From an uncultured Erysipelotrichaceae bacterium (GTDB lineage Bacteria > Bacillota_I > Bacilli_A > RF39 > UBA660): 64,000 bases of DNA. How positions within the stretch are numbered: position 1 is the stretch's first letter; every line of letters starts with the position of its first letter. A program made the translations under genes and the position numbers. The notes below the pieces were generated by a model. It worked only from the letters and a program-made list of their open reading frames with translations. It did no database searches and had not been told where the DNA came from. Shown one piece after another: positions 47,633 to 60,086 of the stretch. Location: assembly GCA_902800945.1 (NCBI GenBank), contig CADCFX010000001.1, positions 1-64,000 of the forward strand, written 5' to 3'.

Positions 47633-48622
47633 TCAAAGTGGTAATAATTCATGTTCTACTTCATGAGCAGTACTATGACGAATAACATCTTCTCTTCCGC
47701 CATCATTGATAATCTGAATAGCAGCAAGAACTTTCTTACTATGATCAAATCTTGTATAATCTGGGAATGCATCCATAGTAAATGTAAATGTACTTGGATC
47801 TCCAGAAGAAGCCATAGTAAATGTGAAGTTAGACTGAATCTTGCAGTTAGGAATTATAAATTCAGCAGGCATATCTACACCATTCTGATCTCTGAAAAGA
47901 GTAGAAGCTTCAAGATAATAGTTACCACCGAATTTATCTGCTGTGATTTCAATCTGTTGAGCATTACTTTCACGAGCTACATAATAATCAACAAGAACAC
48001 TGTCAAATGCTGTTGCACTTAGAAGATCTTTAATAGTATATTGATCATTATTAGAACCATCGTCTACTAATTGATATGTAGCATGTTCAGCAACTCTCAA
48101 AGTATAAACACCATTTGCATCAGCTACAAGCTCTTCATGAACAGGAATATAAGGCTCAGAAACGATTTCTCCGTTTTTCTTGAACATTACATAAGCAAAG
48201 TTTTCATTACCATTTTGAGGTAAATAAGGTTTATTAGATAATTTGATCTGAATTTCTTTATTATCAGGATCAATATCAACACCGTAACTAGCATCAACTG
48301 TTTCTGTAACATGCTGATAAACTGGTTTATCAACAGAAGCGTCAATTAATCCAGCACCAGAAAGAATCATGAAACCTTCTGGAGAGATAAGAGCATCTTC
48401 CATTGTGAAGGTAACTGTACGCTCACCTTCCCATGCTACTAAACGTGAATTACCACGGCCACCTTGTGCATATACTGTTGTAGCTGCACCTTCCATACTA
48501 GAAGTCTTTAATGTATCGAAATAAAGAACTGGTTCATTTGCATAGAAGATTTTACTACCAATCTTTTGTGCAGTCTTAGCCTTAAGAACTACATCGCAAA
48601 TTTCACGAACACCAAATTTCAT
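47633..48622 (-). CDS. Major tail (tube) protein, 329 aa
   Basis: ATG 48620-48622 behind AAGGAGGAATATACACT; ends in TGA; no in-frame TAG. The N-terminal half (MKFGVREICDVVLKAKTAQK, LYFDTLKTSSMEGAATTVYA, GGRGNSRLVAWEGERTVTFT) is the pattern of siphophage and myophage tail tube subunits: a short helix, then a beta-barrel strand with the GRGNxxLxxWEGxRxxTFxxxDALIS signature. The C-terminal half contains an extra strand-rich domain (TFTMASSGDPSTFTFTMDAF). Its own terminator follows. It forms the tail tube; one of the most abundant virion proteins, consistent with its use of CAA/CAG rather than TAG for Gln. Confidence 0.88.
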   Translation of the reverse strand: MKFGVREICDVVLKAKTAQKIGSKIFYANEPVLYFDTLKTSSMEGAATTVYAQGGRGNSRLVAWEGERTVTFTMEDALISPEGFMILSGAGLIDASVDKPVYQHVTETVDASYGVDIDPDNKEIQIKLSNKPYLPQNGNENFAYVMFKKNGEIVSEPYIPVHEELVADANGVYTLRVAEHATYQLVDDGSNNDQYTIKDLLSATAFDSVLVDYYVARESNAQQIEITADKFGGNYYLEASTLFRDQNGVDMPAEFIIPNCKIQSNFTFTMASSGDPSTFTFTMDAFPDYTRFDHSKKVLAAIQIINDGGREDVIRHSTAHEVEHELLPL

Positions 48623-52052: not shown

Positions 52053-52622
52053 TTATTCCTCAGTTTTTACCTCAGTCTCGACTTTTTTAATAACTCGACG
52101 ACCTGTTGATGCTGGCTTTACACGTCTTTGAGGAGTACTCTCCGGAGCAACAATACCATTTTCGGCATCTTCTTGCTTTTCTTCTTCTACATGTGTCAAT
52201 GCAGCATTAACATCAAATCCAGTTTTCTTTTTAAGTGCACGTCTCTTTTCAATATCATTTAAAGGAAGAGAGACTGCAAACTGTCTAATAAGATCCATTA
52301 CACCTGTTGGAGCAAAATCAAGCATATCTAAAAATTCATCTAAAGAACCATAATTCATGATCCTTACAATATCTTCTTCAGAATAATTATATTCTTGTTC
52401 TGCAACAATATTTAGGTCTCTTTGTGCTTCAGCACTTTGGATCTGTAAGAAATTGTTCATCATCATTTGTCCGCCTGGCTGATAAGAAAGTTTTTCAAGC
52501 TCAGTCATCGGAATTGCTTTAGTTTCACCAGGCATAAATTCTCTACGAATATTATCTTCCGGAATACGATAAATAACTACTCCGGCACTTCTATTCTTAA
52601 CTTTATAAATTTTATCTGCCAT
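52053..52622 (-). CDS. Capsid-neighbour protein, 189 aa
   Basis: ATG 52620-52622 behind AAAGGAGATTATTTTA; TAA; no TAG. The N-terminus (MADKIYKVKNRSAGVVIYRI) is a small beta domain, followed by helices (EEDIVRIMNYGSLDEFLDML, VMDLIRQFAVSLP) and a charged, probably disordered C-terminus (RRVKPASTGRRVIKKVE). It directly follows the major capsid gene and a terminator, and precedes the adaptor. Similar proteins after capsid genes may be capsid-associated or connector proteins. Not assigned further. Confidence 0.78.
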   Translation of the reverse strand: MADKIYKVKNRSAGVVIYRIPEDNIRREFMPGETKAIPMTELEKLSYQPGGQMMMNNFLQIQSAEAQRDLNIVAEQEYNYSEEDIVRIMNYGSLDEFLDMLDFAPTGVMDLIRQFAVSLPLNDIEKRRALKKKTGFDVNAALTHVEEEKQEDAENGIVAPESTPQRRVKPASTGRRVIKKVETEVKTEE

Positions 52623-52732: not shown

Positions 52733-53866
52733 TTAAGGATCTTGTTGTGTTCCAGCGCTATGTCCGTCACCAACAGAATTAATCTGTCCTGTATAATCCT
52801 TAATACTCTTATTATTTAAGAACCATGTCTTCATTTGACCTACAAGTGAAGTATCAACGTATGCACAAATGTTATTAGCAAGCATGCAAACAACGCCAAC
52901 TTTCTTGTAAACTTGAATTTCACGAGAACGATCACCAGGATTGTTGAATTCATCAACAATGGTATTACCTTCAAAAGCGATCTTAACAGGTTTTCCATCA
53001 GCGCCAGTTGGAATTACCCAAGCATAGCCAGGATCGATAACCTTAGTTTCATTTGTTTCATCTTCGAAGCCTTGCTCAAGAATAACAACTTGATGTCCTT
53101 TATAATTTGGAAGACGTCCATTATTCCAAAGCTGTTCCTTCATAGACTCAGTATATCTCCAAGCTTCCTGAGGGATCATTTTAACGGCAAATTCATAAGT
53201 ACAATAAATTGTAGGTGTACCATAAGCAGCAGCAATAGTAAGAAGACGATCCATAGCATCTTCATCAAATCCATTAGCAATTACTCTATTTGCTGGTGGA
53301 AGTTGATTAATAGAAGCTTTCAGAGCCTGTCCAACCTCTTTATAAATAAGTTCGTCCATACCTTCCATAACAATTCTTGTTACTTCGGCAAAATCAACAC
53401 GACCATCAAGGAACTCTTCAAATCCAATCTGAGCAGCTCCACCGATTGCGCTTGTACGAACTTCGAAAGCCTCTTCGTTCTTACCAAGCTTAAATACTTC
53501 ATAAATACCTGCAAGTCCAACACGTGTGATGAACTGTTTTGCACGTTGATTAGAAGTCAGCTTACGTCTAAACAGAATCTTATCTCCCTGTGCAAAAGTA
53601 CGAACTTCAGCGAACTGATTATACTGTTCAACAACTTTCTTAGGAAGAACTTCATCTAATGTTTCTTCAATAATACTGAAAATTAAATTTTTATTTTCAC
53701 GATATAAAGCGTATGTTCCTGCCAATTCATTAAGCTCTCTACGAAGAGTTTCGTTAAGAGCTTCATAACTTAAATCCTGGCCACCAAAACTATAGGCAAC
53801 AGGAGCGGAAGGATTAGCTTTAGCAACTTGTTTCATAAGAGCAACAAGATCTTTTCTATCTAACAT
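52733..53866 (-). CDS. Major capsid protein (HK97-like), 377 aa
   Basis: ATG 53864-53866 behind GGAAGGAGGATAAAGTA; TAA; no in-frame TAG. The order is typical of an HK97-fold capsid: helical N-terminal part (LMKQVAKANPSAP, ELNELAGTYALYRENKN), a long-arm/E-loop-like region (EVRTFAQGDKILFRRKLT), the P-domain spine helix (IVMEGMDELIYKEVGQALKA) and an A-domain with TPTIYCTYEFAVKMIP and KVGVVCMLANNICAYVD near the end. It follows protease/scaffold genes and has a strong ribosome binding site and a terminator, as expected for the most abundant virion protein. Fold assignment is from pattern and synteny. Confidence 0.9.
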   Translation of the reverse strand: MLDRKDLVALMKQVAKANPSAPVAYSFGGQDLSYEALNETLRRELNELAGTYALYRENKNLIFSIIEETLDEVLPKKVVEQYNQFAEVRTFAQGDKILFRRKLTSNQRAKQFITRVGLAGIYEVFKLGKNEEAFEVRTSAIGGAAQIGFEEFLDGRVDFAEVTRIVMEGMDELIYKEVGQALKASINQLPPANRVIANGFDEDAMDRLLTIAAAYGTPTIYCTYEFAVKMIPQEAWRYTESMKEQLWNNGRLPNYKGHQVVILEQGFEDETNETKVIDPGYAWVIPTGADGKPVKIAFEGNTIVDEFNNPGDRSREIQVYKKVGVVCMLANNICAYVDTSLVGQMKTWFLNNKSIKDYTGQINSVGDGHSAGTQQDP

Positions 53867-53889: not shown

Positions 53890-54687
53890 TTACGCAATAC
53901 GCATAACCTTAACACCTTTTTGGTGATCAGGCATTGTATAAATCTTAACAACTTGCCATACCATATCGCCAGAGTTAGTTCCCTTTGTTCCACAAAGAAT
54001 TCCATCATCTCCAACATATAAAGATTGGCCAAGAGTAACAGTAGTTTCATTAATTGTATTAGTTGTGAAAATATCGCCAATATTAGTCTTTAATACACGA
54101 GGAACCATAGTTGTACCAGCTGGCATAAACTGTGGACGTGCCTGAGACTCAATGTGATATGGATCTTCATTATAATGAAGTTCATACATATCAGGAGCAG
54201 CTGTTACATCATCATATGGGAAAGTTTCACCATTAACAGTAATAGAAGTATTACCTTGGTCATCTTCTCCATTATAATAACGTGACTGTTTATTAAAATT
54301 AGTGTCATATGTATAAGGATCACTATTTGTTAATTTTTGTCCGTTTGCATCATATTTATCGCCACCAAATGGACTATAAATACGTGCTTGATAATTGTCT
54401 TTAATCATTGCGAATTCGCAATCATCTTGATGTTCTCTATAAAGTTTAATTTCATTATATACTAACATCCATTCACCAGGACCGGTGAAATTTACTAAGC
54501 CATTTGCATAATCATACTTAACGAACTGACCTTGCTCCAAAACATCAATATCAGGATCTGCAGGTAATTGTGCATAAACCTGAGAAGTTCTTTGAGCAGA
54601 AAGATGATTAGGCTCAACTTGACCATAACCCCATTCTACGAAGCTGGCCTGGCTTTGGATATTCTTTTTCAGAAAATCTTTAAGCAT
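53890..54687 (-). CDS. Putative capsid decoration/stabilising protein, 265 aa
   Basis: ATG 54685-54687 behind AAGGAGGAAATAGAAGA; TAA; no TAG. The protein starts MLKDFLKKNIQSQASFVEWG and is beta-rich (FVKYDYANGLVNFTGPGEWM, LVYNEIKLYREH). Its C-terminus (TLGQSLYVGDDGILCGTK...VWQVVKIYTMPDHQ) resembles the beta-tulip type of capsid decoration proteins. It lies between scaffold and major capsid, the usual place of a head decoration protein. The absence of TAG agrees with high expression. Function is inferred. Confidence 0.75.
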   Translation of the reverse strand: MLKDFLKKNIQSQASFVEWGYGQVEPNHLSAQRTSQVYAQLPADPDIDVLEQGQFVKYDYANGLVNFTGPGEWMLVYNEIKLYREHQDDCEFAMIKDNYQARIYSPFGGDKYDANGQKLTNSDPYTYDTNFNKQSRYYNGEDDQGNTSITVNGETFPYDDVTAAPDMYELHYNEDPYHIESQARPQFMPAGTTMVPRVLKTNIGDIFTTNTINETTVTLGQSLYVGDDGILCGTKGTNSGDMVWQVVKIYTMPDHQKGVKVMRIA

Positions 54688-54711: not shown

Positions 54712-55584
54712 TCAATTCATATCTTTCGCAACTTCCATTGCTGCTTTAACCCAAGCAGGGATGGTTGCATCTTTACTAGGATCATCAAAATTAAATGTCA
54801 TAGATGGTCCATCTTTGTGTTTATCATCCTCAAGGTCAAAGCTTACCTTGTTGCGAACACAAATAACAGAAAGTTTAGCCTCAATATCATCTAATGAATA
54901 AGTATCAATGTTTTTAACAACATCAGCCTTATCATCATCAGAAAGCATATAGAAACTATTAATCATAGCTTCTTTATCTTTTCTTTCAGTTTCAAGTTTG
55001 AACTGCTTTAGAGGCTCCATTTCAGAAGTTAATGTATCATAATCAGCTTTTAACTGAGTATAATCGGCTTCTAGCTTATTGAATTTTGTAAGAAGTTCCT
55101 GATATTCAGCACTATCCTCAAGAGAGAATTGTCCTTTTTTCTTTTTCTTCTTATCATCTTCGTCATCATCAGAGTCTTCTTCAGGATCTTCTTCTTCGTC
55201 CTTTTTATCCTCTTCGCCAGAATCTTTGCCTTCTGATTTATCATCAGGATTAGGATTATCTCCTTCACCTTTTTTGTCCTCTTCTTCTTTCTTTTTCTTA
55301 TACTCAGTTTCAAAAGCTTCAATATCTTCAGCTTTGAACTGAGCTTCTGAGCTGAAATCAGTTAATTCGCTAACTTCTTCAGCTGGACTAAATTCATTAT
55401 TTTCAGAAAGTGAAAAGTTTAAACGATAGAATTTATTATCTTCAACATTATGAAGAACAGCAAACTTCTGATCACCTTCAGTATAAAAACCGTAAATTTG
55501 CTGACCAGGAACCGCAGTCTCTACATAATTATAAAGATCTGTCCATAAAGAATCTCCAACTGTTACTGCATAAGTAGTGAACAT
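54712..55584 (-). CDS. Scaffold protein nested in the protease frame, 290 aa
   Basis: A strong internal start lies at ATG 55582-55584, with AATAAAGGAGGATCAAGA directly upstream. It is in the same frame as the prohead protease, whose sequence ends NKGGSR before this Met. The nested product has a folded N-terminus (MFTTYAVTVGDSLWTDLYNY), a highly charged Lys/Asp/Glu linker (about residues 95-150), and a coiled coil (KLEADYTQLKADYDTLTSEM), which is the build of phage scaffolds. It contains no TAG and ends in TGA. The nested arrangement parallels lambda C/Nu3. Confidence 0.78.
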   Translation of the reverse strand: MFTTYAVTVGDSLWTDLYNYVETAVPGQQIYGFYTEGDQKFAVLHNVEDNKFYRLNFSLSENNEFSPAEEVSELTDFSSEAQFKAEDIEAFETEYKKKKEEEDKKGEGDNPNPDDKSEGKDSGEEDKKDEEEDPEEDSDDDEDDKKKKKKGQFSLEDSAEYQELLTKFNKLEADYTQLKADYDTLTSEMEPLKQFKLETERKDKEAMINSFYMLSDDDKADVVKNIDTYSLDDIEAKLSVICVRNKVSFDLEDDKHKDGPSMTFNFDDPSKDATIPAWVKAAMEVAKDMN

Positions 55585-56304
55585 TCTTGATCCTCCTTTA
55601 TTAAGTATTTCCTTCAACTGTTTCATCATTGAATACATCTCTCGTTTGAAAGAAGATTCATCAAATGAAAATTGAACAACTGCGGGTTGTTCATCATAAG
55701 TGAATTCTCCGCTAGTAATAGTGGCGCCTTCGAAACAAGGCTCCTAATCTTCTCCTAAAATACATAAATTTGTAATAACTGCTTCATTAACAATGAAAAT
55801 TTTAGGAACTCCTCTATTATCTTTTGCCCATTCCGCTTTTAAAAATTCATTGTTAAGATTCATAGATTGATTGTTTCCTTTATCCAGAACTCTTTGTACT
55901 TCTGGATATTGCCCAGTCCATAACCAACCCTCTGTCATTAGATATTCTCGCTCATATTTACCATCATCCAAGAATTTTTGGAACCAACATTTTGCGTTAA
56001 AATCAACAAAACCATAAGGTTTTGTTACTTCTCGCATGATGATTTGATGATTTTTAATATCAATCTGTTTGTTATGTTCTTCAAAGTCTTTTGCATATTC
56101 ATTAAAGAACCCCACAATAGGACTTCCTGGCAAACTATTAGCGATTTGCTTGGCAGTTTCTTTGGTGATGATGCTTTTGTTGCGGTTCGGCTCATCACCA
56201 ACATAACATACCTTTATCTAACATTTAGAGATCATTGGGTTAAGTGGAGTTAAATTAATAAACTCGCTAGGCGTAGTCATTTTAATACTTGTGTGTTTTG
56301 GCAT
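54712..56304 (-). CDS. Prohead protease, open reading into the scaffold, 530 aa
   Basis: ATG 56302-56304 behind AAGGAGGCTTATA. TAGs at 56218 and 55744 are read through. Residues 45-190 carry the signature of the prohead protease family of Firmicutes phages: GSPIVGFFNEYAKDFEEH, YGFVDFNAKCWFQKFL, REYLMTEGWLWTGQYPE, NQSMNLN and LCILGED-TAG-EPCFEGA. The conserved EPCFEGA follows the TAG, so the family sequence continues through it. After that motif the frame stays open into the scaffold (ending at the same TGA), so readthrough would make a protease-scaffold fusion. Protease cleaves the scaffold and capsid N-termini during head maturation. If TAG ended translation, the protease would lack its last conserved motif. 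Confidence 0.85.
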
Positions 56305-56315
56305 TATAAGCCTCC

Positions 56316-57962
56316 TTAACTCTACGATTCTTTATTCTAAATTGTTTTTTCAGCTTTCTCACTGTCTGCTTTAGCAGGTCGCCCTGCTTGCTTTGTTTCA
56401 GTTGTTTTAGTTACTGTAGTCTAAGTAGAAGATTTGTTAGTTCCTCCTACTTGGTTTTGCGAATTATTATTAGTGGACTAACCTTTTTGACCCAAAATTG
56501 CATCTGCATTTAAAGTAGATGACATTAATGGAGGAATCATAATTTCGCTTAACTTCAAAATTTCATTTTCAAATGTAGCAGCATATAAAATTGAACTTTG
56601 AGAATGTCCAAGAGCAATCTACGGTAACATTTTAGAATAACCAATTTGAACCATCTCTTTATATTGCTTAGATAATTCTTTATAATTATATTGTGTAGTT
56701 TCTAAGAAATATAAATGATAAGTATATTTGTTTTTATTTTTAGAAAGCTTTGATGTTACTTTATCATAGAACATATTAAATTGAAGTAATAAAGCTCTCA
56801 TTGTAGATTCATCATCAAGAATTGATTTTTCAAGAGATAAATTTCCATCTGTATTAAAAATATTACGCGATACACCAAAAGCATTATAAACTGTACGTTC
56901 AATTTTTTCAAGATCATCTCTTGTTGTAGACGTATTTTTATCAGCCATATCTTCTACATTTACATCAGCAAATGTAGTTAATACATCAACTCCAATAGCT
57001 CGGCGTAACATTTCTACTGCATTATTATGGATGTCTCTTGCTTCATCAACATCAAATATTAAATCGCCATTTTTGTCAAGCGGTAACTTCTAAATTAAAA
57101 TTTTAAGAAGTTGTTGCATCTGTTTTCTTCTGTCTAAATCCTATGCGGCATCTAAGTCTAAGATTGCCGGAATTGCATTAATAAATAATGGCTGATCGCC
57201 ATTTTTAAACCCAAATTTTACAGAAGATTCTGGATCTAATAAATACCAACTACCATATGGATCCCCCAAATAATCTCTTGGTAATTTTCCTGTTTTATAC
57301 ATTAAATAACCTTTTTGAAAATCTTCAGGAAACATTTTTAATACACGAATACGATATTCAGGATCTGTAAAATATTCATCGAAAAATCGCATATTAAATT
57401 CAATAGCTGGCATGTCGCCTACAAAATAGCGGCTGCGGCAATAATTAATTGGTAATTCTTGAACAACTAAACCATCCTTATTTGGGAAAATATAACCATA
57501 ATAAGCACCATTAACTATAACACTAAGAGCTATATCTCCACAAACTTTTTTAATATGAGAATTATCTAAAAATGATAATATGCTATAAAAATCACTTAGA
57601 AGCTTTTTATCTGGTACTGTTGTATCAAATTTTTTCTCTGGTTCTATGTACCAATCATATCTATATAAAAAAGCAAAATAATCACAAATTCTGGCATAAA
57701 TACCATTAGTACGATAGAAGAAATTTGAAATCTCTCGCATAAGCGGAAGATTTCTTTCTGCCATAGCTTTGAAAATAATTCGTTTATCACCAAAATGACG
57801 ATAATTCTTTTTTAACCAACCAAGGTCAAGAACTGCATCTTCAAGAGTTTTAGTTCCTACTTTTATATCTCCATATTCAAGAGGAGCGCCAACATGGTTA
57901 ATTCGACCAGAACGCATCATATCAAAGCCTTTTTTATGGAGTTCTTCCTATCTGTCTCTCAC
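56316..57962 (-). CDS. Portal protein with GTG start, 548 aa
   Basis: A GTG at 57960-57962 stands 9 bases after AAGGAGG; the first ATG further down has no such site. TAA at 56316. TAGs at residue 5 (57948 region), 57141, 57093, 56619, 56478, 56421 and near the C-terminus. The core (KNYRHFGDKRIIFKAMAERN, ISNFFYRTNGIYARICDYFA, YRYDWYIEP) and the central wing (LDPESSVKFGFKNGDQPLFI) match the SPP1-like portal pattern; it ends in a Gln/Thr/Lys-rich tail. The gene lies between terminase/endonuclease and protease. The portal is the dodecameric DNA entry ring. Confidence 0.85.
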
Positions 57963-57976
57963 AGTATTGTACCTCC

Positions 57977-58333
57977 TTAATATCCTGCTTTATGCATTAT
58001 ATAGTCATAAGTAATAAGATTCTCCTCTGTATATGGTATTTCAATTAATTTAATTTCATGCTATCTACAATAGTTTCTTTTCTACCTATCATTATATTGC
58101 TGTTGATAAAATCCTTTCTTTCCGCCATATTTTGCACTTGGCTCATAATGTTGTTTTCCTTGATATTCAATGATAAAATCAACAAAATTATCATCATCAA
58201 AAACAACAAAATCAAAACGAAGTGGGCGGCCACTGGAACTTCTTAATCCTGGAAAACAATATTCCATTTCATAATTAAGTCCAGATTCTTCAAGGATTTC
58301 ATGGATTTTAATTTCGCCTCTACTTGCGTCCAT
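57977..58333 (-). CDS. PD-(D/E)XK endonuclease-like protein, 118 aa
   Basis: ATG 58331-58333 behind AAGGAGGATATT; TAA. Two in-frame TAGs (58082, 58061) are read through. The pattern SRGEIKIHEIL, GRPLRFDFVVFDD, FIIEYQGKQHY and, past the TAGs, HEIKLIEIPY is that of small Vsr/PD-(D/E)XK nucleases common in phages, with the catalytic Asp in RFDFVV and Glu in IEYQGKQH. Without readthrough the last core strand (IKLIEIPY) would be missing. Genes like this, inserted between terminase and portal, often act as free-standing homing endonucleases or in resolving packaging substrates. Confidence 0.82.
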
Positions 58334-58343
58334 AATATCCTCC

Positions 58344-60086
58344 TTAATTAAAGAAAGCCCAATCTTTAGCATTAAACTTCTTTTTCTTCTTTTTATTATC
58401 TTCTTCAATTTTTATATAATATAAACCATATTCAAAAGCAGAGAATTTATCTTTTTTAATTCCTCTATTAGCTTGCTTTAAAATAATATTAACACCTTCA
58501 TTTTCTTCACGAAGGTTCATCATTTCCTCTTTTAATATGGAAGTTAGGGTAAATGGTTTTAAATATTCTGCCCTCTTCTCAGGAGTCATATTTTGACCAA
58601 CTTTTGTACCCATTAATTTTACCTTAGCGACACGCTCATCAATTAAGAGCTTCACCTTTCCAGAAGAAAGTTGTGTTTGAACATTTGAATGTGCCTCATT
58701 ATTAACTGGTGCATTAGCTTTAATTATATAAAGAGCGTCCTATTCACAATTTGCAGTTCTATACTTTTTATATTCATCTACTGCATCATCTTGTGTGCCA
58801 CCATAAACACCGAAATCAGGCCAGATCTCGTTGGTATCAGGATCGATTTGCGGCTTAACTAAATAATCTACAAAACCAATACCCATACCATTTCCATCAA
58901 CTACAAGTCGTTTAGCTTTATATTTATAAAAAAGTTTTTTAACTTTTATAGCCTAATCCTCAAAATGCTCGTCAGATATTGTATAAATATTAACTAATTG
59001 TTTTGTTGATACTCCTTGAGGTTGCGGTGTTACCTTAAATACATTTACTACTGAATCACAACCTTTTCGGCCTACGTCCATAGATAATATATAAAATGAA
59101 GATTTCGAAGCACGACCAGAAGCTTCATATTCTGGTTGCTTTAAAATTCTATTTCTCGTAAAAATCTCTTCATTAAAGAAAGCATCTTCTACCGTACCAG
59201 ACCATTTTGATTCATATTCACGATCAAATGAAGCTTCATTAAAAGTACCGTCCATTTTAAGGTCGCGAACGAAGTTTTTATCAAGAAGTTTCATTAATAC
59301 TGGAATACGATATGTACCACCCATAACAAAAGATTTTTCTGGTTTAACTATTTGCCAAACCAAAAGCTGAATCAGTTTATCATACGGGAATGTATTTTTC
59401 CAACCTGCAGTAGTAATATATAATTGTGACTTATTAAGTTGCTCTTCTGGATGTGTTGATCCATCCATACATAAACGAGAAACATTCATTGTAGGTATAA
59501 TAACTTCTGATAATATTGTTCCATCAACACCGGCACATTCTTCTATTACTCCGGCATGTCTACGCTTACCACGAGAAGTCTCTCTAGCAGCGATATTATC
59601 AAAATAGCTACCTGATTTAAAAACATATTTACAATAATCTTTTCCTTCAAGAGTTACACCACGACTCCAATCTATTTCATTATTAAAAGCTGGAATAAGT
59701 GTACATATCTCCTGAACTTTTTCCTTCATGATACCAGCTGCCTGTTCTTTACCTCCAGAAGTAACAAAAAGTTTACATTTTGGATAAAGGATACAGCGAA
59801 TCATAAGAACCATCATTGATAAAAAGGATTTTGAATACGCACGAGGGAAAACCGCGTACACATATTGATAACGCATAGCTATGCGTAAAAATACACGTTG
59901 ATAAAAGAAAAAATGAAAATCTTGCGGATTTCCTTGCTCCAAAAGCCAATCAACAAACATATCTGGATATTCTCGCCAAAATGCGATATATTCACGAGCA
60001 ATGGGGATAATTGCACGCACACGTTCTTCAGAAAGTCCTACTTTCTTACGCTTCTATTGAAGATTTAAAACTTCTTGTAATTTCAT
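58344..60086 (-). CDS. terL: Terminase large subunit, 580 aa
   Basis: ATG 60084-60086 overlaps the previous gene's TGA (ATGA). TAA at 58344. TAGs at 60054, 58953 and 58740. The ATPase has an adenine/Walker-A-like PRAYSKSFLSM (about residue 80), a Walker B-type VIEECAG (about 180) with catalytic Glu, and a coupling ITTAG. The nuclease domain has MDVGRKGCDSV (about 340) and VVDGNGMG (about 392). The stretch HFED-TAG-AIKVKKLF lies just before VVDGNGMG, where related terminases carry conserved Gln, which supports TAG = Gln. The enzyme cuts concatemeric DNA and pumps it into proheads. Length is normal only with readthrough. Confidence 0.93.

What the first reader, a model, noticed from the sequence alone, without database searches (positions are those of the whole stretch)
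54712..56304. Prohead protease and scaffold share a frame across a TAG
The protease frame is open through TAG 55744 into the scaffold, which has its own strong start at 55584. This is like lambda C/Nu3, but here the junction contains a recoded codon. If TAG is decoded at less than full efficiency, the ratio of protease (ending at TAG), protease-scaffold fusion and free scaffold would depend on suppressor level. The family motif EPCFEGA lies past the TAG, so the truncated form may be inactive.
Basis: partly seen in the sequence, partly recalled or inferred. Interest (0 to 1): 0.7.

Follow-up and report, generated by a model that had tools for sequence, protein, structure and literature searches.

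The report
Nested capsid protease–scaffold gene, recoded phage

Summary
In detail: one minus-strand frame (56304→54712) runs through TAG 55744–55746, and ATG 55584 inside it has a strong Shine-Dalgarno (AAAGGAGG). The nested start is real by comparison: 43 of 50 homologue representatives keep an in-frame start with a ≥7-nt SD just after the protease domain (5.7 expected by synonymous shuffling), including non-recoded cultured phages and an SPβ-group phage; all full-length relatives are fused. The protease model is T4 gp21/herpes-assemblin-like. TAG 187 occurs only in the window and its three nearest relatives, so a dedicated junction switch is unlikely. But in 24 recoded representatives TAG makes up 26% of glutamine codons in the protease half, 5% in the scaffold half and 1–2% in the next head gene and capsid gene; scaffold codons resemble the capsid gene's in 28 of 29. 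Best reading: a conserved λ C/Nu3-like nested pair in which abundant scaffold starts downstream of every TAG in this phage, while the protease fusion needs two readthroughs. No protein product was observed; regulation by suppressor level is untested.

The parts
54712..56304 (-). fused capsid maturation protease-scaffold ORF, 530 aa, TGA stop, two in-frame TAG codons
   Evidence: phrog_3313 E 1.2e-28 over 10-509
55585..56304 (-). protease part, codons 1-240; fold of residues ~16-200 like T4 gp21 and herpesvirus proteases; H77 and S147 as likely catalytic pair
   Evidence: AF2 pLDDT 88.1 for residues 1-230; VIA-align Z 8.8 to 5jbl, T4 gp21, 127 residues, 3.4 A; conserved residues
54712..55584 (-). 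nested scaffold candidate, 290 aa, no TAG; predicted small alpha/beta domain, charged linker, long helix (399-450), C-terminal helix
   Evidence: codon usage close to MCP
55592..55599 (-). internal Shine-Dalgarno AAAGGAGG, 7 nt before ATG 55584
56218..56220 (-).
55744..55746 (-). TAG codon 187; only in window and its three nearest relatives
56316..57962 (-). portal gene, 8 TAGs (context)
   Evidence: phrog_2739 E 2.7e-76
53890..54687 (-). head gene between scaffold and MCP, no TAG (context)
52733..53866 (-). major capsid protein candidate, no TAG (context)
   Evidence: 27% identity, E 2e-16 to the annotated MCP of Bacillus phage PJN02, same gene order
58344..60086 (-). large terminase candidate, 3 TAGs (context)
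   Evidence: weak PHROG terminase large subunit matches and gene order

Best explanation
The gene is a nested protease/scaffold pair. Ribosomes starting at 56304 make the protease fused to the scaffold; ribosomes starting at the strong internal site at 55584 make free scaffold in larger amount. A few fusion molecules would co-assemble into the prohead through their scaffold half, bringing the protease inside, where it would cut scaffold and head proteins. The TAGs are ordinary glutamine codons of a TAG-recoded phage. They sit mostly in the protease half because TAG is selected against in the highly expressed scaffold and capsid genes. A consequence is that free scaffold does not need TAG decoding while the fusion needs two readthroughs here. 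Shown by sequence: frame, TAGs, conserved SD and start, codon-usage and TAG asymmetry, protease fold prediction. Inferred: that both proteins are made, their ratio, co-assembly, and cleavage.
For: SD of 7 nt or more plus in-frame start 29-48 codons after the EPCFEG motif in 43/50 representatives, 5.69 expected. The SD is kept in different codon registers (GGA GG. 61..G GAG G.. 7.GG AGG 2), so the nucleotides rather than the peptide are conserved. Present in non-recoded cultured phages of Bacillus, Alicyclobacillus, Brevibacillus, Staphylococcus, Mammaliicoccus, Clostridioides and Lactococcus, and in an SPbeta-group phage. All full-length homologues are one fused frame. TAG share of Gln codons in 24 recoded representatives: protease 64/244, scaffold 10/202, next gene 2/248, MCP 5/283, portal 66/203; Fisher p 5e-10, 21 of 24 pairs in the same direction. 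Other genes show no such fall along their length. Composition-matched codon similarity to the MCP is higher in the scaffold than in the protease in 28/29, with no rise inside the protease. TAG columns are 6.2-fold enriched in Gln. The fold matches T4 gp21 best.
Against: No protein or ribosome-profiling data. Relatives are not independent, so the p-values overstate. 7 of 50 representatives lack a 7-nt SD there. The fall in TAG use is not sharp at the start codon; the best change point lies at -116 codons with a flat likelihood. The fold match is distant (Foldseek E above 0.01; Z 8.8 is near the level of common arrangements). The full-length model is poor (pLDDT 58).
Confidence: 0.82

Rival explanations
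1. One reading: TAG 55744 is a regulated stop at the junction, and the level of suppression there sets the ratio of truncated protease, fusion and free scaffold.
For: TAG lies between the gp21-like core and the scaffold; incomplete suppression would give such products; in three relatives TAG is the codon directly before the internal start (L111, L126, L129).
Against: TAG 187 only in four near-identical sequences; a second TAG at codon 29 stops unsuppressed ribosomes first; non-recoded relatives do without it; those three relatives also have TAGs upstream (108, 167 or 208), and that column is Gln in many others.
Confidence: 0.07
2. Recoding as a timing device: protease, portal and terminase carry TAGs so that shells (MCP, scaffold) can be made first, and processing and packaging only once suppressor tRNA accumulates.
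For: TAGs in portal, terminase and protease, almost none in scaffold, next head gene and MCP in 24 lineages; published hypothesis that recoding delays late proteins (PMC9523058).
Against: The same pattern follows from expression-level selection alone; codon usage other than Gln shows the same step, also in relatives without TAGs. No time-course data.
Confidence: 0.2
3. Only the fusion is translated, and scaffold is released by self-cleavage; the internal SD is a by-product of a Lys/Glu-Gly-Gly linker.
For: KGG/EGG is common at the site in the window's own clade, and for a few sequences the shuffle null is high (0.4-0.6).
Against: The SD persists in other registers (KEV, KEE, KED) and with ATG/GTG/TTG starts; TAG and codon-usage steps.
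Confidence: 0.08

Closest known systems
Bacteriophage lambda C/Nu3 (and Mu I/Z)
   Same: Protease with scaffold nested in frame at its 3' end, own start, shared stop; order portal - C/Nu3 - small head gene - MCP matches here (lambda side from my own knowledge)
   Different: lambda gpC belongs to the S49 (ClpP/SppA-like) proteases by my own knowledge; here the best fold match is T4 gp21/herpes assemblin, so likely not the same protease lineage. lambda has no recoded stops.
Herpesvirus UL26/UL26.5 (assemblin/assembly protein)
   Same: Assemblin-type protease fused to scaffold, and the scaffold also made separately from the 3' part of the same frame (own knowledge)
   Different: There by a nested transcript, here by an internal Shine-Dalgarno start; sequence identity of the folds about 10%
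SPbeta-like and 949-like large siphophages of Firmicutes (phrog_3313 family), phAss-1 group
   Same: Homologous gene in the same gene order; fused; most have the same internal start
   Different: Most use the standard code; the nested start is not annotated in the records read. phAss-1 is recoded but has no TAG in this gene
TAG-to-Gln recoded (code 15) phages: crAss-like, Lak, phAss-1
   Same: In-frame TAGs in late genes, TAG columns enriched in Gln, CUA tRNA in the nearest long relative
   Different: I found no report, in the papers read, of protease-versus-scaffold asymmetry or of TAG avoidance in capsid and scaffold

Membership tests
lambda C/Nu3-type nested protease/scaffold gene (arrangement) | in-frame internal start with ribosome site near the end of the protease part, shared stop | tested here: met
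lambda C/Nu3-type nested protease/scaffold gene (arrangement) | gene lies between portal and MCP | tested here: met
lambda C/Nu3-type nested protease/scaffold gene (arrangement) | C-terminal part is a helical, removable scaffold | tested here: inconclusive
   long helix predicted (399-450) but whole-protein model poor; no assay
lambda C/Nu3-type nested protease/scaffold gene (arrangement) | both proteins are made in infected cells | not testable with these tools
   no proteomic or profiling data held
lambda gpC protease family (S49) | ClpP/SppA-like fold | tested here: inconclusive
   the fold lists show T4 gp21 and herpes proteases on top, no S49 chain listed; absence from the list is not proof
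T4 gp21 / herpes assemblin-type capsid proteases | shared fold | tested here: met
   Z 8.8, 127 residues, 3.4 A to 5jbl; herpes proteases next; Foldseek weaker, E 0.03 for HCMV protease
T4 gp21 / herpes assemblin-type capsid proteases | conserved catalytic His and Ser | tested here: inconclusive
   H77 invariant and S147 invariant or nearly so; active-site geometry and activity not measured
TAG-to-Gln recoded phages (code 15) | TAG inside conserved genes aligned with Gln | tested here: met
   Gln 6.2-fold enriched in TAG columns; 224 TAGs in the listed minus-strand genes
TAG-to-Gln recoded phages (code 15) | suppressor tRNA with CUA anticodon | tested here: inconclusive
   none in the 70,470-nt contig; one in the contig of the nearest long relative L001, with a Gln-like acceptor end but a long variable arm

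The most novel reading that the evidence does not exclude
TAG recoding works as a dial on head assembly: scaffold and capsid are made without suppression while protease (and portal, terminase) rise only with suppressor tRNA, so the phage sets protease dose and maturation time by tRNA level.
Probability: 0.2. Interest if true: 0.75.

Novelty: new variant of a known kind. Interest (0 to 1): 0.5.

Why it matters
It shows by comparison that a large phage group including an SPβ relative, a laboratory model, carries an unannotated nested scaffold gene, so its head assembly can be tested directly. The TAG asymmetry between two halves of one frame gives an internally controlled sign that reassigned stops cost something in highly expressed proteins, which bears on the open question of what stop-codon recoding does in phages.

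Tried and rejected
Junction TAG as a conserved switch: rejected as a family feature, present only in four near-identical sequences. 5'-to-3' decline of TAG as the cause of the asymmetry: not seen in other window genes or in relatives' portals. Amino-acid composition as the cause of the codon step: controlled for. RNA structure at the internal start: none, weaker than shuffles. Promoter-like matches in the region do not exceed the shuffled expectation. Pfam and PDB sequence searches gave nothing useful. S49/ClpP-like chains were not among the listed fold matches. My first query on the host genome was uninformative. Translations in the wrong frame were discarded.

Full report
What is there. On the minus strand one frame runs from ATG 56304 to TGA 54712 if TAG is read as sense. 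It holds two TAGs, codon 29 (56220–56218) and codon 187 (55746–55744), and an internal ATG at 55584 (codon 241) preceded by AAAGGAGG with a 7-nt spacer. The protease start at 56304 also has a good Shine-Dalgarno (AAGGAGG).

Code. No tRNA lies in the window or in the rest of its 70,470-nt contig. In an alignment of 81 homologues, columns with TAG are 6.2-fold enriched in glutamine. The contig of the nearest long relative (L001; 95% identity over the aligned protein) has a CUA tRNA whose acceptor end looks glutamine-like but whose variable arm is unusually long. Reading TAG as Gln is therefore well supported, but not by this contig's own tRNA.

Homologues. Scans of IMG/VR and phage records gave about 80 distinct proteins. 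All full-length ones are a single fused frame, in recoded and non-recoded phages alike. In the annotated phage records read, the gene is one CDS and no nested gene is annotated.

The nested start. Of 50 representatives, 43 have a start codon with an SD match of at least 7 nt 29–48 codons after the EPCFEG motif; shuffling synonymous codons within each gene predicts 5.69. Elsewhere in the same genes 1 was seen and 3.44 expected. The SD occurs in all three codon registers, mostly GGA GG. (61) but also ..G GAG G.. (7) and .GG AGG (2), and the start may be ATG, GTG or TTG. It is also present in Staphylococcus SPbeta-like, Mammaliicoccus, Lactococcus PMBT69 and Clostridioides LIBA6276 phages. In SPbetaL2 of B. 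subtilis the gene after the portal gene, which I take to be the equivalent of YonD from gene order, matches the protease profile weakly (E 5.7e-05 for a one-sequence search) and has AAGGAGG eight bases before ATG 203. The seven exceptions include the Lactococcus 949 group member tested (L019), an Enterococcus phage (L018) and some remote sequences.

What the parts are. The protease part gives a confident model (pLDDT 88). Its best structural match is T4 capsid protease gp21 (5jbl, Z 8.8, 127 residues, 3.4 A), followed by herpesvirus proteases; Foldseek alone gives only weak matches to herpes proteases, while predicted phage 'prohead proteases' match well. H77 and S147 are conserved. The remainder is predicted as a small domain, a charged linker, a 52-residue helix and a C-terminal helix (low overall confidence). 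The neighbours are portal, a small head gene and the MCP candidate, which is 27% identical to the annotated MCP of Bacillus phage PJN02.

TAG distribution. In the window TAG is 224 of 926 glutamine codons over the listed minus-strand genes, but zero in the scaffold part, the next head gene, the MCP candidate and two other structural genes. In 24 recoded representatives TAG makes up 26% of glutamine codons in the protease half, 5% in the scaffold half, 0.8% in the next gene, 1.8% in the MCP candidate and 33% in the portal. Other genes show no comparable fall along their length. With glutamine left out and amino-acid composition matched, scaffold codons are closer to the phage's own MCP than protease codons are in 28 of 29 cases, and there is no rise inside the protease. 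This agrees with a scaffold expressed more than the protease. The change is gradual rather than a sharp step at the start codon, and the sequences are related, so the p-values should be read as descriptive.

Mechanism. Most likely: fusion from the upstream start, free scaffold from the internal start, co-assembly of a few fusions, then proteolysis inside the prohead. Only the sequence features are shown; expression, co-assembly and cleavage are inferred from lambda, T4 and herpesvirus systems (own knowledge). If suppression efficiency is e, the fusion in this phage scales with e squared while free scaffold does not depend on e; this is arithmetic, not measurement.

The junction TAG is lineage-specific (window and three near relatives), its column is variable, and TAG 29 comes first, so a dedicated junction switch is unlikely. 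The wider idea, that protease but not scaffold depends on TAG decoding, fits most recoded relatives (21 of 24 have the higher TAG share in the protease part; some have one or two TAGs in the scaffold), but can be explained by expression-level selection without regulation. Published work proposes that recoding delays late proteins (PMC9523058); the phAss-1 paper describes related recoded phages with suppressor tRNAs (PMC10607447). I found no mention of this asymmetry in the papers read, which is not proof that none exists.

Noticed in passing
L084:271-360 (contig of L001): 90-nt tRNA with CUA anticodon: acceptor end U1-A72, G2-C71, G3-C70, G73 as in tRNA-Gln, but about 19 extra nt in the variable arm; ARAGORN calls it Pyl. 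The contig also has about 30 tRNAs and a tmRNA (tag ANYEYRMAA).
   Followed up: partly
57977-58408 (-): Free-standing homing endonuclease gene with two TAGs between the large terminase and portal genes (phrog_9084).
   Followed up: no
L111, L126, L129: TAG is the codon directly before the internal start (TAG-ATG or TAG-GTG), so in the standard code the protease would stop exactly where the scaffold begins.
   Followed up: partly
47633-48622, 52053-52622 (-): Two further TAG-free genes; the first is a virion structural protein (phrog_2729); highly expressed structural genes seem to avoid TAG and keep CAG.
   Followed up: partly
L011 and L012 against window 54712-55584: The scaffold's first ~100 residues are a predicted alpha/beta domain that some relatives lack, while the internal start stays in place.
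   Followed up: no
window contig G000:C1: The phage contig is binned in a 1.42-Mb genome (90.5% complete, 7.9% contamination), so the host is not established.
   Followed up: no
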